A DNA stretch of 58,012 nt. Source: Deltaproteobacteria bacterium GWA2_38_16. Lineage in GTDB: Bacteria; Bdellovibrionota; JACOXK01; 2-02-FULL-40-11. The stretch lies in the NCBI GenBank assembly GCA_001797335.1, contig MGPE01000006.1, positions 129,314-187,325 on the forward strand, read 5' to 3'. Numbering within the stretch: position 1 is the stretch's first letter; every line of letters starts with the position of its first letter. Position numbers and translations under genes: made by a program. The notes under the pieces were generated by a model that was given only the letters and a program-made list of their open reading frames with translations, searched no databases and was not told where the DNA came from. Below, piece after piece: positions 5,252 through 44,590 of the stretch.

Positions 5252-6025
5252 ATGAGCAAAAATAACATTCCTCTTATTTTTGGAAATCCTAAAGATGCGG
5301 CCTTTTTTAATCCTACCGACTGGATTTCTTATGCCAAAGAACAAGGAAAATTTAAAAATTGGCAGCCGGTGACTTCCTGTATCCTCACATTTAATTATGA
5401 TTGGTTTAATTTGCTTAAAAAATCTCTCAAACTTTACACCAAATATGATCGCCAAATTCATGTATTTAAGGTGGGATCTAAAAAAATTGCTGCCCAACAT
5501 GTTTCTGTCGGTGCTGCAAAAGCTGGAATTGAATTAGAAGTTCTCGTAGCTTTGGGAATTAAAAAATTTATTGCCATCGGGTCTGCCGGTTCTCTCCAAG
5601 AACATGTTACTACCGGAGATATTTGTCTTCCCACCAAAGCCATTCGAGATGAAGGAACTTCTTACCACTACATGTCCCCTTCTAAATATAGCTATCCCAC
5701 TCTCCCTTTATTTAAAGCGCTCAAAAAAATACTCCAAAAAAAGAATTTTACTTATTTTGCGGGACCTACGTGGACAACCGATGCTCCTTATCGAGAAACC
5801 ATTCGAAAAATTCTAACCTATCGAAAAGAAGGCTGCCTTACCGTAGAAATGGAAGCGGCTAGTCTTTTTGCCATTGCCAAACACAGAAAAGTTTCTCTTG
5901 TTTCGATTTTAAATATCTCTGATGAACTCACGGGTACTCATTGGAAGCCCAATTTCCATCACAAAAAACACCAGCAATCTAAAGAAAAACTGATTGAAGC
6001 CGCCATCGAAACCCTATCGATCTAA
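5252..6025 (+). CDS. Nucleoside phosphorylase (PNP/uridine phosphorylase family)
   Basis: Cytoplasmic purine/uridine phosphorylase-type enzyme cleaving a nucleoside with phosphate to base plus ribose-1-phosphate. Visible family features are FIAIGSAGSLQEHVTTGDI (phosphate-loop region), TTDAPYRE and the active-site motif VEMEAASLFAIA. At 257 residues it has the usual size. The N-terminal ~60 residues are less conserved and the exact substrate cannot be read from sequence. The final 45 bp of the gene (from 5981) are part of a perfect 48-bp sequence found again at 7838-7885, on the far side of an inserted two-gene unit. Confidence 0.82.
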   Translation: MSKNNIPLIFGNPKDAAFFNPTDWISYAKEQGKFKNWQPVTSCILTFNYDWFNLLKKSLKLYTKYDRQIHVFKVGSKKIAAQHVSVGAAKAGIELEVLVALGIKKFIAIGSAGSLQEHVTTGDICLPTKAIRDEGTSYHYMSPSKYSYPTLPLFKALKKILQKKNFTYFAGPTWTTDAPYRETIRKILTYRKEGCLTVEMEAASLFAIAKHRKVSLVSILNISDELTGTHWKPNFHHKKHQQSKEKLIEAAIETLSI

Positions 6026-6028
6026 AAA
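5981..6028 (+). repeat. 48-bp direct repeat, copy 1 (3' end of nucleoside phosphorylase)
   Basis: Positions 5981-6028 are identical to 7838-7885 at all 48 positions (offset 1857). This copy holds the last codons and stop of the intact phosphorylase gene. Confidence 0.95.
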
Positions 6029-6030
6029 GA

Positions 6031-6462
6031 CTACTTCTTAATAATATACTCTTTCCATCGGATTAATAAATATGCCCCTTGAACATAGGAAGAATCTTTA
6101 AATACACACCGATTAGATGCTATCCATTCCCCTTTCCATTGATAAGACATAATGTGAGGAGTACCCAAGAGAGCTTTGCATAGTTTAAAAACAGGCGTTC
6201 CATATTCAGAGTAATAGTCTTTCACAAAAATTGGTTTTTTAATCTCTTGTTTCGCTAAACAAGGTTCCTGGTAACATGATTTTGAAATAAAGAAAGATTG
6301 GTCCTGATACGAAAAAAGGCAATAAGAACTTTTTTCATATTTTTCTTTTCCCATTTTAAACCATTTTATTTTTCCATTTACACATGACGCCTCATAAGCA
6401 AGGGTATTTTGAATCAAAAATAAAAATAAAAACATGATCATTAAAAATATTTTATTGAACAT
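6031..6462 (-). CDS. Small secreted cysteine-rich protein in the protease cassette
   Basis: The 143-residue protein starts at MFNKIFLMIMFLFLFLIQNT (ATG 6462-6460), a signal peptide cut near TLAYEA. The mature part has six cysteines (in ASCVN, SYCLF, KSCYQEPC, KLCK, NRCVF), suggesting three disulfides. A longer in-frame ORF to 6627 exists but runs through the protease coding region, so I reject it. It overlaps the end of the protease gene by 11 bp, implying translational coupling. A role as inhibitor, partner or immunity protein of the protease is plausible but unproven. I recognise no family. Confidence 0.65.
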   Translation of the reverse strand: MFNKIFLMIMFLFLFLIQNTLAYEASCVNGKIKWFKMGKEKYEKSSYCLFSYQDQSFFISKSCYQEPCLAKQEIKKPIFVKDYYSEYGTPVFKLCKALLGTPHIMSYQWKGEWIASNRCVFKDSSYVQGAYLLIRWKEYIIKK

Positions 6463-7816
6463 ACGTAATCCCCTCAAGAGTCCTAGATAAAAAATCTTCA
6501 GGTACCCAAACATATCCTCTGTCACAAGAAAAATCATAGGTACAATTTGCTCCCCATGAATTCCGAACAAGATATTCGCAAGACTGCCTATTCTCAACCC
6601 ATCGCCTCCCCACCACACTAGAAGCATGTGGTCCTTCTAACTCAAGAGCGAAGCGATTATCTAAAATATTGGCATAATAGCTAATGCCTACAATATTATT
6701 GTGATTAAGTTGATCATCCATCTCTTTAATTAAACTGCCTGTATCTGAAAATAAGCCTTTATATTTTGCAGTGATGCTTAAATTTTCAATAGGCTCCAAT
6801 CTTTTCCCTTTACAATTTTCTTCTATTAATGTGTCCATCAACACAAAATAAGGCGTTCTATTCAAAATATCGGTAATATCCGATATACTTAAATTAGGAA
6901 GCATTCTGGCAAACAAGGGTCCTTCACAGGCTTGAAATTCTTCTTCCTGATGTTGTTTCTTGGCTTCTTCTAGTTTTGTTTGATCCTCTTCAAGTCTTTT
7001 CAATGCTTGCTTTAATGATAAATATTCCGTAAAAGCCACATCTGAAGAAGGAAGATCTTGTTCTAAACAAAGGCCTCTTTTATTAGCTGCCTCCAAAGCA
7101 TCTTCTATCCATCCGCCTTCGATATCGGCTTCCTTGTATCCAAATAAAGATTTAAAGGCCCCTCTCATGCTTTCATCATTATATGCATTGGCCACATCCA
7201 CCGCAGAGATGAGTTGTCCTGTTTTATAACTTAAAAGATCTGCTGCCGTAAAAGCATAACACCACCCAATACCATCTTGATCCCGAACCCCCATCAAAGG
7301 AAACCTTCGATTATCTTGGTTAGAACAAGAATGTTTTCTTTGATGCGCGGCATTTCTCCCCTGTTCTTCCAGCTGAACCTGAACAGGAACAGACAGGTGA
7401 TTTACTAATGGGATAGAAGTGCTCCAAGCATCTAAAACATCTCTTAATTTTTGTATGGCCGCATAAGGTGGACGATACCTTGAACTTCTTTCGATTTCAC
7501 TGGTCAGAAATGCAATTTGTTTTTTATAGAGCTCTTTAAAGTGGGCATTAACAAATAAGATTATCTTTTGCCTATCCTCAACATAGCCACCACAATGCTT
7601 ATCAATATCATCCAAAAAATTTATTATGCGTGGTTTAAGTGCCACCACATCTTCAATTTCTTGTAATCTCTCCCATTGATTTTGATATTCTCTCTTTTGA
7701 TTGGAATTCATGAAAGGACACCCTCTTAAATCTAGCGGGCGACTTAAGCTTTCGTAGGGCATCCAAAATAAAGTTAAAAATATAACACCAATAAAAAATT
7801 TAAAATAATATTCCAC
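6452..7816 (-). CDS. Secreted papain-like (C1 family) cysteine protease
   Basis: A 454-residue protein with a signal peptide/anchor (residues 1-25). A helical ~150-residue propeptide-like segment precedes the catalytic domain. The catalytic residues are visible: Gln and Cys in VRDQDGIGWCYAF (Cys186), His397 in EGPHASSVVGRRW and Asn419 in CEYLVRNSWGANC, followed by GYVWVPEDFL. An unusual Lys/Glu-rich coiled insertion, near residues 270-300, sits inside the domain. The start codon is GTG at 7816-7814 with a weak ribosome site, 22 bp from the distal repeat copy. It is followed by an overlapping Cys-rich secreted gene. Predicted to act outside the cytoplasm. Confidence 0.85.
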   Translation of the reverse strand: MEYYFKFFIGVIFLTLFWMPYESLSRPLDLRGCPFMNSNQKREYQNQWERLQEIEDVVALKPRIINFLDDIDKHCGGYVEDRQKIILFVNAHFKELYKKQIAFLTSEIERSSRYRPPYAAIQKLRDVLDAWSTSIPLVNHLSVPVQVQLEEQGRNAAHQRKHSCSNQDNRRFPLMGVRDQDGIGWCYAFTAADLLSYKTGQLISAVDVANAYNDESMRGAFKSLFGYKEADIEGGWIEDALEAANKRGLCLEQDLPSSDVAFTEYLSLKQALKRLEEDQTKLEEAKKQHQEEEFQACEGPLFARMLPNLSISDITDILNRTPYFVLMDTLIEENCKGKRLEPIENLSITAKYKGLFSDTGSLIKEMDDQLNHNNIVGISYYANILDNRFALELEGPHASSVVGRRWVENRQSCEYLVRNSWGANCTYDFSCDRGYVWVPEDFLSRTLEGITYVQ

Positions 7817-7837
7817 AGATGTCTTATCGGCATTTTA

Positions 7838-7885
7838 AAAGAAAAACTGATTGAAGCCGCCATCGAAACCCTATCGATCTAAAAA
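7838..7885 (+). repeat. 48-bp direct repeat, copy 2 (orphan phosphorylase 3' end)
   Basis: Identical to 5981-6028 including the stop codon, but with no phosphorylase coding sequence upstream. It marks the distal boundary of the inserted protease unit. Confidence 0.95.
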
Positions 7886-7890
7886 ACACA

Positions 7891-8187
7891 TCAGGCTACT
7901 TTTTCAAGTTCAATCTTTATTTTTAAACGAAATGGATAAAGATAAAGGTCCAGAGTTTCTGGTTTTGGACGCCTTCGATCTTTTAAGAAATCAACAATGT
8001 TTGGAGATGGGATACCGGATACTTCTGAGAATTCCTTTACTCCCATTCGTTGAATGGCATGCTTAAGAGCTTCTTCCACACTTAGCCCTTCTTCTCCTTC
8101 CATAAGGGTGATAAAAAAATTCTGAGCAAATTTTGGATTTCTCATTTTTTCACTTAATCTGTGATCATAGGATTTACTTCGATTCAT
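7891..8187 (-). CDS. HigA-like antitoxin (addiction module antidote)
   Basis: A 98-residue protein with a helix-turn-helix in the second half (MGVKEFSEVSGIPSPNIVDF), typical of the Xre-like antidotes partnered with the addiction-module killer family. Starting at ATG 8187-8185, it overlaps the end of the toxin gene by 14 bp. The order is toxin first, antitoxin second, as in HigBA-type loci. It would neutralise the toxin and autoregulate the operon. The stop codon lies 6 bp from the distal 48-bp repeat of the neighbouring inserted unit. Confidence 0.75.
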   Translation of the reverse strand: MNRSKSYDHRLSEKMRNPKFAQNFFITLMEGEEGLSVEEALKHAIQRMGVKEFSEVSGIPSPNIVDFLKDRRRPKPETLDLYLYPFRLKIKIELEKVA

Positions 8188-8488
8188 ATATTCTCCAAAA
8201 TTCTTTTGCCTTTTGTATATTCTTATCCTGAGAACTCTTATCTCCTCCCAAAAGAAGGATCATTTGATTTTTACTCCTTCCAAAATAAACTCGATATCCA
8301 GGACCATAATCAATTTTAATTTCAAAAACACCATCTCCCACAGGTTTTAAATTTTTCCTACCACCCCCTAATGCAATACGATCTACATAGGCATAAATCT
8401 TTGCTTGAGTTACAATATCCAGTGTCTCTATCCATACTGAATAAGGCTCCCTATTTTTAATATTACCAAAAATGATAATTTTAATCAA
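8174..8488 (-). CDS. RelE/HigB-like toxin (addiction module killer protein)
   Basis: A 104-residue protein of the RelE/ParE superfamily. The hallmark segment is visible: LKPVGDGVFEIKIDYGPGYRVYFGR followed by ILLLGGDKSSQDKNIQKA (given here in two parts; the join is at residues about 75-77). Family members are ribosome-dependent mRNA interferases or gyrase poisons; which applies cannot be told. The start is TTG at 8488-8486 with AGGA upstream. Its start lies 9 bp after the comM stop on the same strand, so read-through from the sigma-54-driven comM gene is possible. Confidence 0.78.
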   Translation of the reverse strand: MIKIIIFGNIKNREPYSVWIETLDIVTQAKIYAYVDRIALGGGRKNLKPVGDGVFEIKIDYGPGYRVYFGRSKNQMILLLGGDKSSQDKNIQKAKEFWRIYESK

Positions 8489-8497
8489 GTTTTTTCC

Positions 8498-10009
8498 TCA
8501 TCTATCTAAAAAGCGAAGCTGGATGGCTTGGGCAATGTGGGGAGTTCTTATATTTTCTTCTCCTTCCATATCGGCCAACGTTCTCGATACTTTTAAAATT
8601 CGATGATAGGTCCGATAGCTCAATCCAAATTTTTCCATCGCTTCATTTAAAATTTTTTCTGCCGAAGATTCTAAGGTACAAAACTCTGCAATAGCCCTAG
8701 GAGACATGTGACTATTGGTAAAAAAATGACACTCCTTAAATCGAGATCCTTGGATGTTTCTGGCTTTCAACACTCGTTCTAAAATATCTTTCGATGATTC
8801 TTCTAGTGATGAAGACCCCTCTTCTACAGTAACTGCCGGCACCAACACTTGAACATCAATTCTATCCATTAAAGGCCCTGACAGCTTTCCTCGATAGTGC
8901 TGGATCCGGGCATCACTACAGATACAATCTTTTTTAGGATGATTTAAATACCCACACGGGCAAGGGTTCATCGCTGCTACCAGCATAAATCTAGCCGGAT
9001 ATAAAAATCGTCCATTGACCCGACATACAGAAATTTTTCCTTCTTCCATGGGTTCCCTTAAGACTTCCAGTACATCTCTTTTAAATTCGGGAATCTCATC
9101 TAAAAAAAGTATCCCATGATGCGCAAGACTGACTTCCCCAGGCATAATAGAATTTTTTCCACCTCCTACGAGCGCCGCATAAGAAGCCGTGTGATGGGGA
9201 CTTCGAAAAGGACGCTCATAAATAAGTGATTCCTTAGGTTTTAATAACCCAGATACCGAATAGACCTGGGTTGTTTCCAAAGATTCTTTAAAAGTTAAAG
9301 GAGGTAAAATCGATGGTAAGCGTCTAGCCAACATAGACTTTCCACATCCCGGAGGACCCATCATGAGTACATTGTGTCCTCCCGCCGCAGCAATTTCTAA
9401 CGCCCGCTTAGCCCACTTTTGCCCTTTCACCTCAGAAAAATCTATTTCTGACTTCTGTGAGGAAGAAGGCTCAGAAAATTTAACGGGAGTTAAAGATATT
9501 TCTTCTTTTAAAAATTGAATAGCTTCCATCAAACTTTCAATACCATACACATTCATCTGAGAAACAACCGAAGCTTCCAGTGCGTTTTCTTTTGGTAAGA
9601 GAACGGTTTTAATCCCTTGTTTATAGGCCGAAAGCACTAGCGGCAATACCCCTCGAATAGGCTGGAGCCTCCCTTCCAACGATAGTTCACCTAAAAAAAG
9701 ATATTCTTTATATTTTTGACAATTCCATTGTTGGTCGGCCATAAGAAGTCCTAACGCAATGGCCAATTCAAAAGAAGATCCCTCTTTTTTAAGGTGGGCA
9801 GGGGATAAATTCACCGTAATTCGTTTCATGGGAAAAGAAACATCACTATTTTTAAATGCCGATCGAACACGCTCTTTACTTTCTTTTACCGACGTATCCG
9901 GCAACCCTACTACACAAAAAGAGGGGAGCCCAGATTGTAAATCCACCTCTACCCTCACTAAACACGCCTTAAGCCCCACCACACACCCACTCATCACATA
10001 TGAAAGCAT
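8498..10009 (-). CDS. comM: ComM/YifB-family Mg-chelatase-like AAA+ ATPase
   Basis: The family includes ComM, a hexameric helicase that promotes branch migration during integration of transformed DNA. In order: an N-terminal Lon-type domain (GLPSFCVVGLPDTSVKES), Walker A GPPGCGKSMLA (~215-225), HHTASYAALVGGG, Walker B ILFLDEIPEF, a Cys cluster CPCGYLNHPKKDCICS, and a C-terminal helical domain with SYRTYHRILKVSRTLAD. I set the start at ATG 10009-10007 because AGGAGG stands directly upstream and family members begin at this point. The longer ORF to 10054 runs through the promoter. A sigma-54 element at 10033-10050 implies unusual RpoN control of this gene. 503 residues, normal size. Confidence 0.92.
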   Translation of the reverse strand: MLSYVMSGCVVGLKACLVRVEVDLQSGLPSFCVVGLPDTSVKESKERVRSAFKNSDVSFPMKRITVNLSPAHLKKEGSSFELAIALGLLMADQQWNCQKYKEYLFLGELSLEGRLQPIRGVLPLVLSAYKQGIKTVLLPKENALEASVVSQMNVYGIESLMEAIQFLKEEISLTPVKFSEPSSSQKSEIDFSEVKGQKWAKRALEIAAAGGHNVLMMGPPGCGKSMLARRLPSILPPLTFKESLETTQVYSVSGLLKPKESLIYERPFRSPHHTASYAALVGGGKNSIMPGEVSLAHHGILFLDEIPEFKRDVLEVLREPMEEGKISVCRVNGRFLYPARFMLVAAMNPCPCGYLNHPKKDCICSDARIQHYRGKLSGPLMDRIDVQVLVPAVTVEEGSSSLEESSKDILERVLKARNIQGSRFKECHFFTNSHMSPRAIAEFCTLESSAEKILNEAMEKFGLSYRTYHRILKVSRTLADMEGEENIRTPHIAQAIQLRFLDR

Positions 10010-10032
10010 AATAAACCTCCTGAAATCAGGAT

Positions 10033-10050
10033 ATGCAAAGCGTGTGCCAG
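10033..10050 (-). promoter_or_regulatory. Sigma-54 promoter for comM
   Basis: The minus strand reads CTGGCACACGCTTTGCAT. GG (10048-10047) and GC (10036-10035) are 10 bases apart. The predicted start near 10023 leaves a leader of only about 15 nt carrying AGGAGG. The site lies inside a module shared with 43973-44040. Confidence 0.75.
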
Positions 10051-10071
10051 GCATTTTGAGCTTGAAATGAG

Positions 10072-10095
10072 AAAAAAGCGGACGGAAAACCGTCC
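10072..10095 (-). terminator. Rho-independent terminator of lgt
   Basis: The stem GGACGG/CCGTCC (10095-10090 with 10085-10080) has a 4-nt loop and is followed on the minus strand by six T residues (10077-10072). It lies directly after the lgt stop codon. Confidence 0.85.
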
Positions 10096-10096
10096 A

Positions 10097-10891
10097 CTAC
10101 GACGGAAGCTTACGAGCGCGCCACCAAAGAAGAATTCCTCCCAGGATCATAAAAAGTCCTAAAAACTGAGAGGTAGAAAGAATATTGGAAATAACAAAAC
10201 CACGGACTTCATCCCCTCTAAAAATTTCAATAACACCACGTCCGATAGGATAAAAAATAAGGTACCCCGCTAAAAGTTGGCCATCAAACTTTTTTCGTTT
10301 TCTCATCCAAATTAAAATTAAAAATACCAAAAAATTAGCGCTAGCTTGCCACAGCTGAGTTGCATAAAGAGGAATACCCAGCGGTCTAGAAAAACTATCG
10401 GGATTAGTAGCCACATAACTAATGGGAAATTGTACAAAATCACAAATTTTCCCATGACAACATCCCGCTAAAAAACATCCCAATCTTCCAAACATGGTTC
10501 CCAATGCCAAATAGGGCGCGAAAATATCCATAGATTTTAAGATGGGTATTTTGTGCTTTTTTGTATACCACCAAAGCACAATAGCAGCGGGAATAAACCC
10601 TCCTAAAAAGGTATATCCCCCCTTCCATACTTTTGGAATTTCAAGAGGATTAGAAAAATAATAAGAAGGCTTTTCAAAAAATACATGAAAAAGACGAGAT
10701 CCAATAAGGGCCGCTAAAATAATATAGGTCGCTACATTTAAAAAATGTTCAGGATCTAACCCCTCTGTTTTAGCTCGTCTGACGACTAAATATAACGCTA
10801 GGCTAAAACCAATAGCTAACATCGTCCCATATCCGGGAATAGGGATATAAGAATCTGCTCCGAACGGAATCTTTAGTAAAATCGGATACAT
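10097..10891 (-). CDS. lgt: Prolipoprotein diacylglyceryl transferase
   Basis: An inner-membrane enzyme that transfers diacylglyceryl from phosphatidylglycerol to the lipobox Cys of prolipoproteins, first step of lipoprotein maturation. The 264-residue protein has about seven membrane segments. The signature region GRLGCFLAGCCHGK and the arginine-bearing GSRLFHVFFE and YPIGRGVIEIFRGDE motifs are present. Its presence agrees with lipobox proteins elsewhere in the window (13555-14274, 36373-37260). It ends at a strong terminator that separates it from comM. Confidence 0.95.
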   Translation of the reverse strand: MYPILLKIPFGADSYIPIPGYGTMLAIGFSLALYLVVRRAKTEGLDPEHFLNVATYIILAALIGSRLFHVFFEKPSYYFSNPLEIPKVWKGGYTFLGGFIPAAIVLWWYTKKHKIPILKSMDIFAPYLALGTMFGRLGCFLAGCCHGKICDFVQFPISYVATNPDSFSRPLGIPLYATQLWQASANFLVFLILIWMRKRKKFDGQLLAGYLIFYPIGRGVIEIFRGDEVRGFVISNILSTSQFLGLFMILGGILLWWRARKLPS

Positions 10892-16167: not shown

Positions 16168-16267
16168 GGAAGTGTAAAAGTCTCTGGTGTGCTTCCTGGA
16201 CTTCAAATCCAGTGGCGGGGATAGTCACTATGTCCGCGGTGGGTTCGATTCCCATACACTTCCGCCA
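16168..16267 (+). tRNA. selC: Selenocysteine tRNA (anticodon TCA)
   Basis: The 100-nt RNA has an 8-bp acceptor stem (GGAAGTGT with ACACTTCC), a long variable arm (about 16213-16240), T-arm GGGTTCGATTCCC and an encoded CCA. The anticodon stem CTGGA/TCCAG presents TCA at 16203-16205, which reads UGA. These are the diagnostic traits of bacterial tRNA-Sec, so the genome should encode SelA, SelB, SelD and at least one selenoprotein. None of these lies in this window. Confidence 0.95.
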
Positions 16268-34545: not shown

Positions 34546-34987
34546 CGGCATAGCCTGTGTTTTGATCCAACTTGGATTATTTCTAATCCTTTCTAAACTT
34601 CCTACTCCTGCCGATGCTCTCTTGCTTCAACTTACTTTTTCGAAAGAAACATTTACTCACATTGCTCAAACATGGGGGATAGAAGGAACCCATATTTATC
34701 TGAACCATTATTATTTGGATATGATGTACCCTATTTTTTATTCGCTTTTTCTCTCAGGCATTCTTAAAAAATTTTCTTCCACTTCTATTATTTATCTTCC
34801 TTTTATAGCCTGTGCTTTTGACCTCATTGAAAACACCTGCCACATTCTTCTTCTTACTTCTGGAAATTTTTCTTTCTCACTTATTATTCTAGCGGCTCTT
34901 TGTGCCTGGATAAAGTGGATCATTCTTCTCATTACTCTAATTCTAGTATTTTTATTCTGGAAGAAAAGCCCATCCCCTCCATATTGA
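34532..34987 (+). CDS. Small polytopic membrane protein of unknown function
   Basis: 151 residues with four predicted membrane segments (starts NGIACVLIQLGLFLIL and MMYPIFYSLFLSGIL, ends WIILLITLILVFLFWKK). NHYYLDMMYPIFY and AFDLIENTCHILL are notable charged-in-membrane segments seen in uncharacterised families. It begins at TTG 34532 inside the activator gene (14-bp overlap), so the two are coupled. Its C-terminal codons lie in the repeat that also makes up the yggU 3' end on the other strand, so the natural end of this protein may have been altered. Confidence 0.6.
   Translation: MLLINGIACVLIQLGLFLILSKLPTPADALLLQLTFSKETFTHIAQTWGIEGTHIYLNHYYLDMMYPIFYSLFLSGILKKFSSTSIIYLPFIACAFDLIENTCHILLLTSGNFSFSLIILAALCAWIKWIILLITLILVFLFWKKSPSPPY
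34935..34970. repeat. yggU-3'-end repeat, copy A
   Basis: A 36-bp core (extending to 38 bp at 34933-34970 against copy B with one mismatch) is shared with 37293-37328 and 38445-38480. It lies within the last codons of the membrane protein gene. Confidence 0.9.
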
Positions 34988-35020
34988 CTTTCTATTCTTT
35001 TTCCAATATATATCCCCCGC

Positions 35021-37260: not shown

Positions 37261-37292
37261 ACCACTTTTATTAATTCTTCTTACCTCTCTTA

Positions 37293-37371
37293 CTCTAATT
37301 CTACTATTTTTATTCTGGAAGAAAAGCCTGAGATAATTTGAATATGGGATAAAATCGATATTTATTTCTTT
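37293..37371 (-). pseudogene. yggU remnant (repeat copy B with internal deletion)
   Basis: Positions 37293-37350 match 38445-38502 (yggU 3' end) at 57 of 58 positions, and 37351-37371 match 38707-38727 (upstream of yggU) at all 21. The 204 bp between those two blocks in the intact locus (38503-38706, most of yggU and its leader) are missing. This is therefore a duplicated yggU locus that lost its interior. Confidence 0.85.
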
Positions 37372-38424: not shown

Positions 38425-38438
38425 ACTTTCTTCTCACT

Positions 38439-38660
38439 CTAATTCTCTAATTCTAATATTTTTATTCTGGAAGAAAAGCCTGAGATAATTTGAATATGGG
38501 ATTTGGCAATTTTAAAATGCTTTGAAAGAAGCAAAATCAACGCTTCATTGGCCTTTCCTTCTTGTGCAGGCGCATGCACCCACACTTCATATTCCCCTGA
38601 AGAAATCTGAACCACTTTTTCCTGCTTTGAATTAGGTTTTATTTTAACTCGAATTTTCAT
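38439..38660 (-). CDS. yggU: YggU family protein (DUF167)
   Basis: 73 residues matching DUF167: KIRVKIKPNSKQEKV, the conserved VHAPAQEGKANEALILLLSK and C-terminal ISGFSSRIKIL. Function unknown in general; often encoded near yggS/yggT, and yggS is indeed 1 kb away. The last ~19 codons lie in the sequence repeated at 34935 and 37293. A palindrome with 8-bp arms (38669-38688) lies just upstream. Confidence 0.88.
   Translation of the reverse strand: MKIRVKIKPNSKQEKVVQISSGEYEVWVHAPAQEGKANEALILLLSKHFKIAKSHIQIISGFSSRIKILELEN
38445..38502. repeat. yggU-3'-end repeat, copy C (intact gene)
   Basis: Matches 37293-37350 at 57 of 58 positions; the first 36 bp are also shared with 34935-34970. Confidence 0.95.
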
Positions 38661-43954: not shown

Positions 43955-43972
43955 CTTAGATATTAATCATAT

Positions 43973-43998
43973 CGGACGGTTTTCCGTCCGCGTTTTTT
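43973..43998 (+). terminator. Rho-independent terminator of rarA
   Basis: CGGACGG (43973-43979), TTTT loop, CCGTCCG (43984-43990), then CG and six T residues (43993-43998). Confidence 0.9.
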
Positions 43999-44019
43999 GA
44001 CATTTGAGCTCAAAACCCC

Positions 44020-44036
44020 TGGCACATGCTTTGCAT
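44020..44036 (+). promoter_or_regulatory. Sigma-54 promoter of the coiled-coil gene
   Basis: TGGCACATGCTTTGCAT: GG (44021-44022) and GC (44033-44034) are 10 bases apart. The start near 44046 gives a ~47-nt leader ending in an AAGGAG ribosome site. Confidence 0.75.
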
Positions 44037-44092
44037 ATAAATAATCCCTAGACAGAAACACTTAAATTCTTATATTTTAACAAGGAGAAAAT

Positions 44093-44590
44093 ATGACACT
44101 GACAAAACAAGACTTAACAGAAGCACTTCAAGTAACAAAAAAAGACTTAACTGCTGCACTTCAAGAAACAAAAGAAGGCTTTACTGAGGCCCTGCAAGCA
44201 ACAAAAAAAGACTTAACTGAGGCGCTTCTAGAAACTAAAAAAGATTTGCTTCTAGAAACAAGAAAAGATCTAACAAAAGCACTTCAAAAAACTAAAAAAG
44301 AGATTTTGGAGGCGGTGGATCAAAAGCTCACTGCCCAAGAAAAGCATTTTGATGAAAAATTAGATCAACGATTCACTGATCAAAAACAATACTTAGATGA
44401 TAAACTGGACCAAAAAGTAGATTCCCTAAAAGTACTCATTGAAGATATTCGAGATGACATTCAACTTTTAGTCGAAGGCAGAGATCCCATTATCAAAAAA
44501 CAAGATCAGCACGAACAAAAAATCATTCATCACGAAACCAGACTCACAACTTTAGAAGATTATACCTATACTAAAGATCGATTAAAATAA
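44093..44590 (+). CDS. Hendecad-repeat coiled-coil protein
   Basis: 165 residues. Residues 2-70 consist of about six imperfect 11-residue repeats of the type QxTKKDLTEAL (QVTKKDLTAAL, QETKEGFTEAL, QATKKDLTEAL, KTKKEILEAV), the signature of a right-handed hendecad coiled coil. The rest remains helical and charged (DEKLDQRFTDQ, DDKLDQKVDSL). There is no signal peptide. Function unknown; the repeat suggests a filament or spacer. Start set by AAGGAG before ATG. Its own sigma-54 promoter lies 57-73 bp upstream. Confidence 0.75.
   Translation: MTLTKQDLTEALQVTKKDLTAALQETKEGFTEALQATKKDLTEALLETKKDLLLETRKDLTKALQKTKKEILEAVDQKLTAQEKHFDEKLDQRFTDQKQYLDDKLDQKVDSLKVLIEDIRDDIQLLVEGRDPIIKKQDQHEQKIIHHETRLTTLEDYTYTKDRLK

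What the first reader, a model, noticed from the sequence alone, without database searches (positions are those of the whole stretch)
5981..7885. Two-gene protease cassette bounded by a perfect 48-bp copy of the host gene 3' end
The last 45 bases of the nucleoside phosphorylase gene plus three bases (5981-6028) recur without a mismatch at 7838-7885, where no phosphorylase is attached. The 1857-bp unit between carries a secreted papain-like protease and an overlapping Cys-rich secreted protein, both reading towards the host gene. Duplication of a gene 3' end around foreign DNA is what integrating islands leave behind, but there is no integrase, transposase or tRNA. The perfect identity argues for a recent event. 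A mobile, recombinase-free cassette of secreted effectors would be new to me.
Basis: partly seen in the sequence, partly recalled or inferred. Interest (0 to 1): 0.75.

Follow-up and report, generated by a model that had tools for sequence, protein, structure and literature searches.

The report
Protease cassette inserted with target duplication
A small pair of secreted-protein genes was inserted at the end of a housekeeping gene, leaving an exact 48-bp copy of that gene end; it is one of about eleven such scars in this genome, so the genome has repeatedly gained toxin-antitoxin and protease genes by duplicating the target, with no dedicated recombinase found.

Summary
48 bp (last 45 of the phosphorylase gene plus AAA) recur perfectly at 7838-7885, only twice in the genome. 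Between them lie a papain-like protease with an intact catalytic set and an overlapping Cys-rich secreted protein. Three family relatives have the empty site: phosphorylase and ComM converge and abut or overlap. The window therefore holds two insertions: the protease pair (48-bp repeat) and, beyond it, an older HigBA-type toxin-antitoxin pair.

The repeat is one of a class: 1.43 Mb of this genome has about 11 loci with sharp-edged exact 20-48 bp direct repeats 0.8-6 kb apart (simulation 0). At least six repeats span a host-gene stop codon. Cargo is toxin-antitoxin pairs, AAA_14/DUF4143 ATPases and secreted proteases. Repeat sequences share no motif and vary in length; the only tyrosine recombinases found are XerC/XerD-like; Ku is absent. 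A second locus (P-type ATPase/MgtE) repeats the architecture: S8 protease plus HigBA, three target copies, two empty relatives.

Best reading: 'insertion with long target duplication', known for restriction-modification genes, here genome-wide with other cargo and visible at gene 3' ends because duplication keeps convergent genes intact. The molecular step is unproven.

The parts
5252..6025 (+). Host gene: nucleoside phosphorylase (PNP_UDP_1 superfamily); its last 45 bp are the left repeat
   Evidence: ORF; Pfam PF01048 E=1.2e-32; orthologues 74% identical next to ComM in three relatives
5981..6028 (.). Target duplication, copy 1 (attached to the phosphorylase)
6031..6462 (-). Small secreted Cys-rich protein (143 aa), conserved partner of the protease; function unknown
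   Evidence: no Pfam, NCBIfam or PDB relative
6452..7816 (-). Secreted papain-like cysteine protease (454 aa), Q180/C186/H397/N419 invariant
7838..7885 (.). Target duplication, copy 2 (detached)
7891..8187 (-). Antitoxin-like gene (98 aa), 3' partner of the toxin; assigned by position and its helix-turn-helix-like sequence, no family match
8174..8488 (-). HigB/RelE-ParE type toxin (Gp49-like)
   Evidence: PF05973 E=1.4e-8; TIGR02683 E=1.2e-26
8499..8513 (.). Partial third copy of the target (CATCTATCTAAAAAG), still coding the ComM C-terminus; edge of the older toxin-antitoxin insertion
   Evidence: compare
8498..10054 (-). ComM/YifB, the other host gene; abuts or overlaps the phosphorylase 3' end in relatives
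   Evidence: PF01078 E=4.6e-95

Best explanation
The 48-bp repeat is a target duplication. In an ancestor the phosphorylase and ComM genes met 3' end to 3' end. First a HigBA-type toxin-antitoxin pair, later the protease/Cys-rich pair, was inserted there. The later event copied 48 bp of target, so the phosphorylase kept its end and a second copy was left on the far side. It is one of about 11 such insertions recognisable in the examined 72% of this genome, with varied cargo, varied target sequence and varied duplication length (20-48 bp). The process is therefore a general, not sequence-specific, insertion of foreign DNA with long target duplication. The most likely molecular step (inferred, not shown) is capture of a DNA fragment, perhaps taken up through the ComEC machinery, at a break with staggered ends or during template-switching repair, so that the 20-50 bp between the two ends is copied on both sides. 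Gene 3' ends are over-represented because, in a compact genome with abutting or overlapping convergent genes, only insertions that duplicate the overlap leave both genes intact. Toxin-antitoxin and protease cargo would then be kept by addiction or benefit. The two proteins are probably a secreted papain-like protease and its co-expressed partner, whose role (inhibitor, chaperone or co-effector) is open.
For: Exact repeat, single-copy target, sharp edges. Empty site in three relatives at 74% identity, where phosphorylase and ComM 3' ends abut or overlap. Genome-wide class: about 11 loci in 1.43 Mb, 0 in simulation; six of 11 repeats contain the stop codon of a host gene of at least 100 aa, binomial P about 8e-6 (loci were curated by eye). 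Exact architectural parallel on contig C2: P-type ATPase and MgtE overlap by about 17-21 bp in two relatives, but here are separated by an S8 protease unit and a HigBA unit bounded by three copies of a 39-45 bp target. HEPN/nucleotidyltransferase-type pair with a 34-bp duplication on C5; AAA_14/DUF4143 gene with 20 bp on C13; sucD 3' end, 35 bp. The class relative G006 has a HEPN/nucleotidyltransferase pair with a 29-bp duplication at the pyruvate kinase 3' end. No shared motif, no terminal inverted repeats, XerC/XerD-like recombinases only, Ku absent, ComEC present.
Against: The empty sites come from another genus (74% protein identity), not from a strain of the same species. The paralogous cassette at the tRNA-Leu gene has its 19-bp tRNA-end copy in tandem beside the tRNA, not on the far side, and does not fit the model cleanly. 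Two loci (C6:80702 and C6:166618) are composite copies, suggesting duplication plus deletion rather than simple insertion. At sucD the relatives have ndk next door, so no clean empty site was seen. The control genome G014 had no sharp pair in 0.40 Mb, which is only weakly different from this genome's rate (P about 0.05). The molecular step is not observed. Reads were not available to rule out assembly error.
Confidence: 0.7

Rival explanations
1. Integrase-type genomic island or satellite: an element with an attP identical to the phosphorylase 3' end integrated by a tyrosine recombinase acting in trans, or whose integrase was later lost.
For: 48-bp identity at a gene 3' end is what such elements leave; tandem occupation of one site; the paralogous cassette lies directly after tRNA-Leu with a 19-bp copy of its 3' end, which the G005 tRNA-Leu locus lacks.
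Against: Only XerC/XerD-like tyrosine recombinases found; no serine-recombinase motif in 1.43 Mb (weak regex test); the two copies of the cassette family sit at unrelated targets; other loci share no motif and carry different cargo.
Confidence: 0.12
2. Tandem duplication followed by deletion: a larger segment including the phosphorylase 3' end was duplicated and the rest of the second copy was lost.
For: C6:83864-84209 and C6:166618-166684 look like duplicated segments with internal deletions.
Against: In the window only 48 bp of the phosphorylase remain, perfectly identical and without decay, and the protease pair has no place in the ancestral neighbourhood.
Confidence: 0.1
3. An unknown dedicated enzyme (transposase-like, acting in trans) inserts cargo with a 20-50 bp staggered cut, preferring gene 3' ends.
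For: High number of events in one small genome, recurrent cargo classes, enrichment at 3' ends.
Against: Variable duplication length, no common ends or terminal inverted repeats; 3'-end enrichment is expected from selection alone.
Confidence: 0.06
4. Assembly artefact: repeats created by scaffolding or by mixed strains.
For: The genome is in 19 contigs and the repeats are shorter than usual assembly k-mers.
Against: Units carry complete functional modules, the sites are empty in relatives, and a class relative shows the same kind of event.
Confidence: 0.02

Closest known systems
Insertion with long target duplication (Nobusato et al. 2000, restriction-modification genes of Helicobacter pylori; known here through PMC1643837, PMC3874152, PMC3031569)
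   Same: Insert absent at the site in a related genome; exact direct repeat of single-copy target on both sides; variable repeat length; no mobility gene needed
   Different: Cargo here is toxin-antitoxin pairs, AAA_14 ATPases and secreted proteases instead of restriction-modification genes; repeats are 20-48 bp against the order of 100 bp; many events in one genome and strong presence at gene 3' ends
Integrative genomic islands, IMEs and satellites at gene 3' ends
   Same: Duplicated 3' end of a host gene around foreign DNA
   Different: No integrase, no common att site, 1.8-kb size, unrelated targets
Gene cassettes of (super)integrons
   Same: Small cargo units rich in toxin-antitoxin pairs, found in tandem
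   Different: Repeat comes from the host gene, no attC-type repeat shared by cassettes, no integron integrase passing its cut-off
Papain (C1A) cysteine peptidases
   Same: Gln-Cys-His-Asn set conserved; weak profile match to cathepsin K
   Different: Too distant for Pfam or NCBIfam models; long N-terminal region; fixed Cys-rich partner gene
Staphopain-staphostatin type protease/inhibitor operons (from own knowledge)
   Same: Papain-like protease gene followed by a small co-transcribed gene
   Different: Partner here has a signal peptide and is Cys-rich; no sequence relation tested; inhibition is a guess

Membership tests
Insertion with long target duplication | Insert absent at the orthologous site of a relative | tested here: met
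   Three relatives have phosphorylase and ComM 3' ends abutting or overlapping; relatives are of another genus
Insertion with long target duplication | Exact direct repeat of target sequence on both sides, single copy elsewhere | tested here: met
   48/48 identity, two copies in genome
Insertion with long target duplication | Long, variable duplication length over independent events | tested here: met
   20-48 bp over about 11 loci; shorter than the order of 100 bp quoted in PMC3874152
Insertion with long target duplication | No transposase-type ends (terminal inverted repeats) | tested here: met
Insertion with long target duplication | Restriction-modification cargo | tested here: not met
   Cargo is protease pair and toxin-antitoxin; not a mechanistic requirement, so it makes this a variant
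Integrase-type island or IME | Integrase in the element | tested here: not met
Integrase-type island or IME | Host gene 3' end duplicated as att site | tested here: met
Integrase-type island or IME | Excised circle | not testable with these tools
   needs reads or PCR
Integron gene cassette | Shared attC-type recombination site and integron integrase | tested here: not met
   no shared motif among repeats; tyrosine recombinases are XerC/XerD-like and below the integron-integrase cut-off
Papain (C1A) peptidase | Oxyanion Gln and Cys-His-Asn catalytic residues | tested here: met
   Q180, C186, H397, N419 invariant in 8 homologues
Papain (C1A) peptidase | Papain fold | tested here: inconclusive
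   Profile hit to cathepsin K E=4e-4; single-sequence model too poor, pLDDT 41
HigBA/RelE-ParE toxin-antitoxin | Toxin of Gp49/RelE-ParE family with adjacent antitoxin | tested here: met
   PF05973 and TIGR02683 for the toxin; the antitoxin has no family match and is inferred from position

The most novel reading that the evidence does not exclude
This lineage has an active, dedicated but unrecognised insertion activity that places accessory gene units (toxin-antitoxin pairs, AAA_14 ATPases, secreted proteases) at gene ends with a 20-50 bp target duplication and leaves no recombinase in the cargo.
Probability: 0.12. Interest if true: 0.85.

Novelty: new variant of a known kind. Interest (0 to 1): 0.56.

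Why it matters
How stand-alone toxin-antitoxin pairs and other accessory genes enter chromosomes without a transposase or integrase is an old open question. This genome offers about eleven events with the target copy still exact, two of them with clear empty sites in relatives, so the insertion process and the reason for gene-3'-end placement can be tested directly.

Tried and rejected
Site-specific att reading: rejected after finding other loci with different targets and no common motif. Classical bacterial end-joining: Ku not found. Transposon reading: no terminal inverted repeats. A core-site hairpin in the 48-mer (ATCGA-N7-TCGAT) is not exceptional (z -1.2). Single-sequence structure models of both cargo proteins were too poor to use. 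The original papers of Nobusato 2000 and Furuta 2010 are not held (for the latter); their content is taken from citing papers. Sigma-28-like CCGATAAG upstream of both own-genome protease genes recurs only in one clade of the phylum, so no promoter claim is made.

Full report
OBSERVATION. The 48-bp repeat is exact (5981-6028 and 7838-7885), consists of the last 45 bases of the phosphorylase gene plus AAA, and occurs only twice in the 2.0-Mb genome. The flanks outside the repeat are unrelated. The unit holds a 454-aa protease gene (6452-7816, -) and a 143-aa gene (6031-6462, -) that overlap by 11 bp. There is no mobility gene or tRNA in the unit and there are no terminal inverted repeats.

CARGO. 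Eight homologues keep Gln180, Cys186, His397 and Asn419, the papain set; a profile weakly matches cathepsin K. Pfam and NCBIfam have no model for either protein. In 25 of 30 protease loci of the phylum the same small Cys-rich gene is the neighbour, so this is a conserved gene pair. This genome has a second copy of the pair at contig C6:202.6-204.5 kb, directly after a tRNA-Leu gene. None of five family members and two class members has the protease, which suggests gain by this lineage.

EMPTY SITE. In three relatives (phosphorylase 74% identical) the phosphorylase and ComM genes converge and abut or overlap, with nothing between. In the window both the protease pair and a HigBA-type pair (toxin: PF05973 and TIGR02683; antitoxin by position) lie between them. 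The ComM side keeps a partial copy of the target (8499-8513), which still codes the ComM end. Since copies 1 and 2 are identical over 48 bp and the third matches only about 15 bp with changes, the protease insertion is the younger of the two (inference).

A GENOME-WIDE CLASS. I scanned 1.43 Mb of the genome for exact direct repeats with unrelated flanks. After setting aside dispersed repeats and paralogues by eye, about 11 loci remain with repeats of 20-48 bp, 0.8-6 kb apart. A Markov simulation gave none in 7 Mb. A control of 0.40 Mb from a genome of the same phylum gave none with sharp edges, though with that sample size the difference is only marginal (P about 0.05). Six of the 11 repeats contain the stop codon of a host gene of at least 100 aa; a random 35-bp segment does so with probability 0.027, giving P about 8e-6. 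Cargo: HigBA, HEPN/nucleotidyltransferase-type pairs, a ParE-type pair, HicA-type toxin, AAA_14/DUF4143 ATPases, secreted proteases. A class relative has a HEPN/nucleotidyltransferase pair with a 29-bp duplication at the end of pyruvate kinase.

THE PARALLEL. On contig C2 a P-type ATPase gene and mgtE overlap at their 3' ends in two relatives (G001 and G002), and converge without overlap in a third, G003. Here they are separated by a secreted S8 protease unit and a HigBA unit, with three copies of a 39-45 bp target, so that each host gene keeps an intact end. This is the same architecture as the window with unrelated sequences, which makes a site-specific recombinase unlikely and selection for intact gene ends likely.

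MECHANISM. Shown: insertion, duplicated target, variable length, no common motif, only XerC/XerD-like tyrosine recombinases, no Ku, ComEC present. Inferred: DNA capture at a staggered break or by template switching. A dedicated enzyme in trans is not excluded; serine recombinases and DDE transposases were not searched genome-wide with profiles.

COMPARISON. [quoted passage not shown]). What differs is the cargo, the shorter repeats, the number of events in one genome and the gene-3'-end placement.

LIMITS. Relatives are of another genus; reads were not available; 28% of the genome was not scanned; the tRNA-Leu copy with its tandem 19-bp end and two composite repeats are not explained by a simple insertion.

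Noticed in passing
window 34927-34992, 37285-37350, 38437-38502: Second repeat family in the window: the 3' end of a DUF167-like gene (46 bp exact, 66 bp at 94%) is repeated, bounding a unit with a secreted 159-aa gene; a weaker third copy bounds a neighbouring unit with 451-aa and 295-aa secreted proteins. Same kind of event as the finding.
   Followed up: partly
L124 6576-6613 (own genome, contig C6): The last 19 bp of tRNA-Leu are repeated in tandem (18/19) right before the second protease cassette; the G005 tRNA-Leu locus has one copy and another gene there.
   Followed up: partly
L123 about 6681-6800 (G002): A detached C-terminal remnant of the phosphorylase lies beside ComM in inverted orientation, while the full gene is missing at the site; possibly duplication linked to inversion.
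   Followed up: no
window 7801-7830; L124 6640-6650: CCGATAAG lies 10-18 bases upstream of both own-genome protease genes, like a sigma-28 -10 element; related forms occur in one clade of the phylum (L104, L154, L298, L299).
   Followed up: partly
window 16168-16267: A selenocysteine tRNA gene predicted by ARAGORN.
   Followed up: no
window 44102-44323: Tandem 33-bp coding repeats (six copies, 61-82% alike).
   Followed up: no
window 10031-10102 and 43967-44038: Long inverted repeat, 72 nt, 81% complementary, 34 kb apart.
   Followed up: no
L242 10249-11476 (G006): HEPN/nucleotidyltransferase pair inserted at the 3' end of pyruvate kinase with an exact 29-bp duplication in a class-level relative.
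   Followed up: partly
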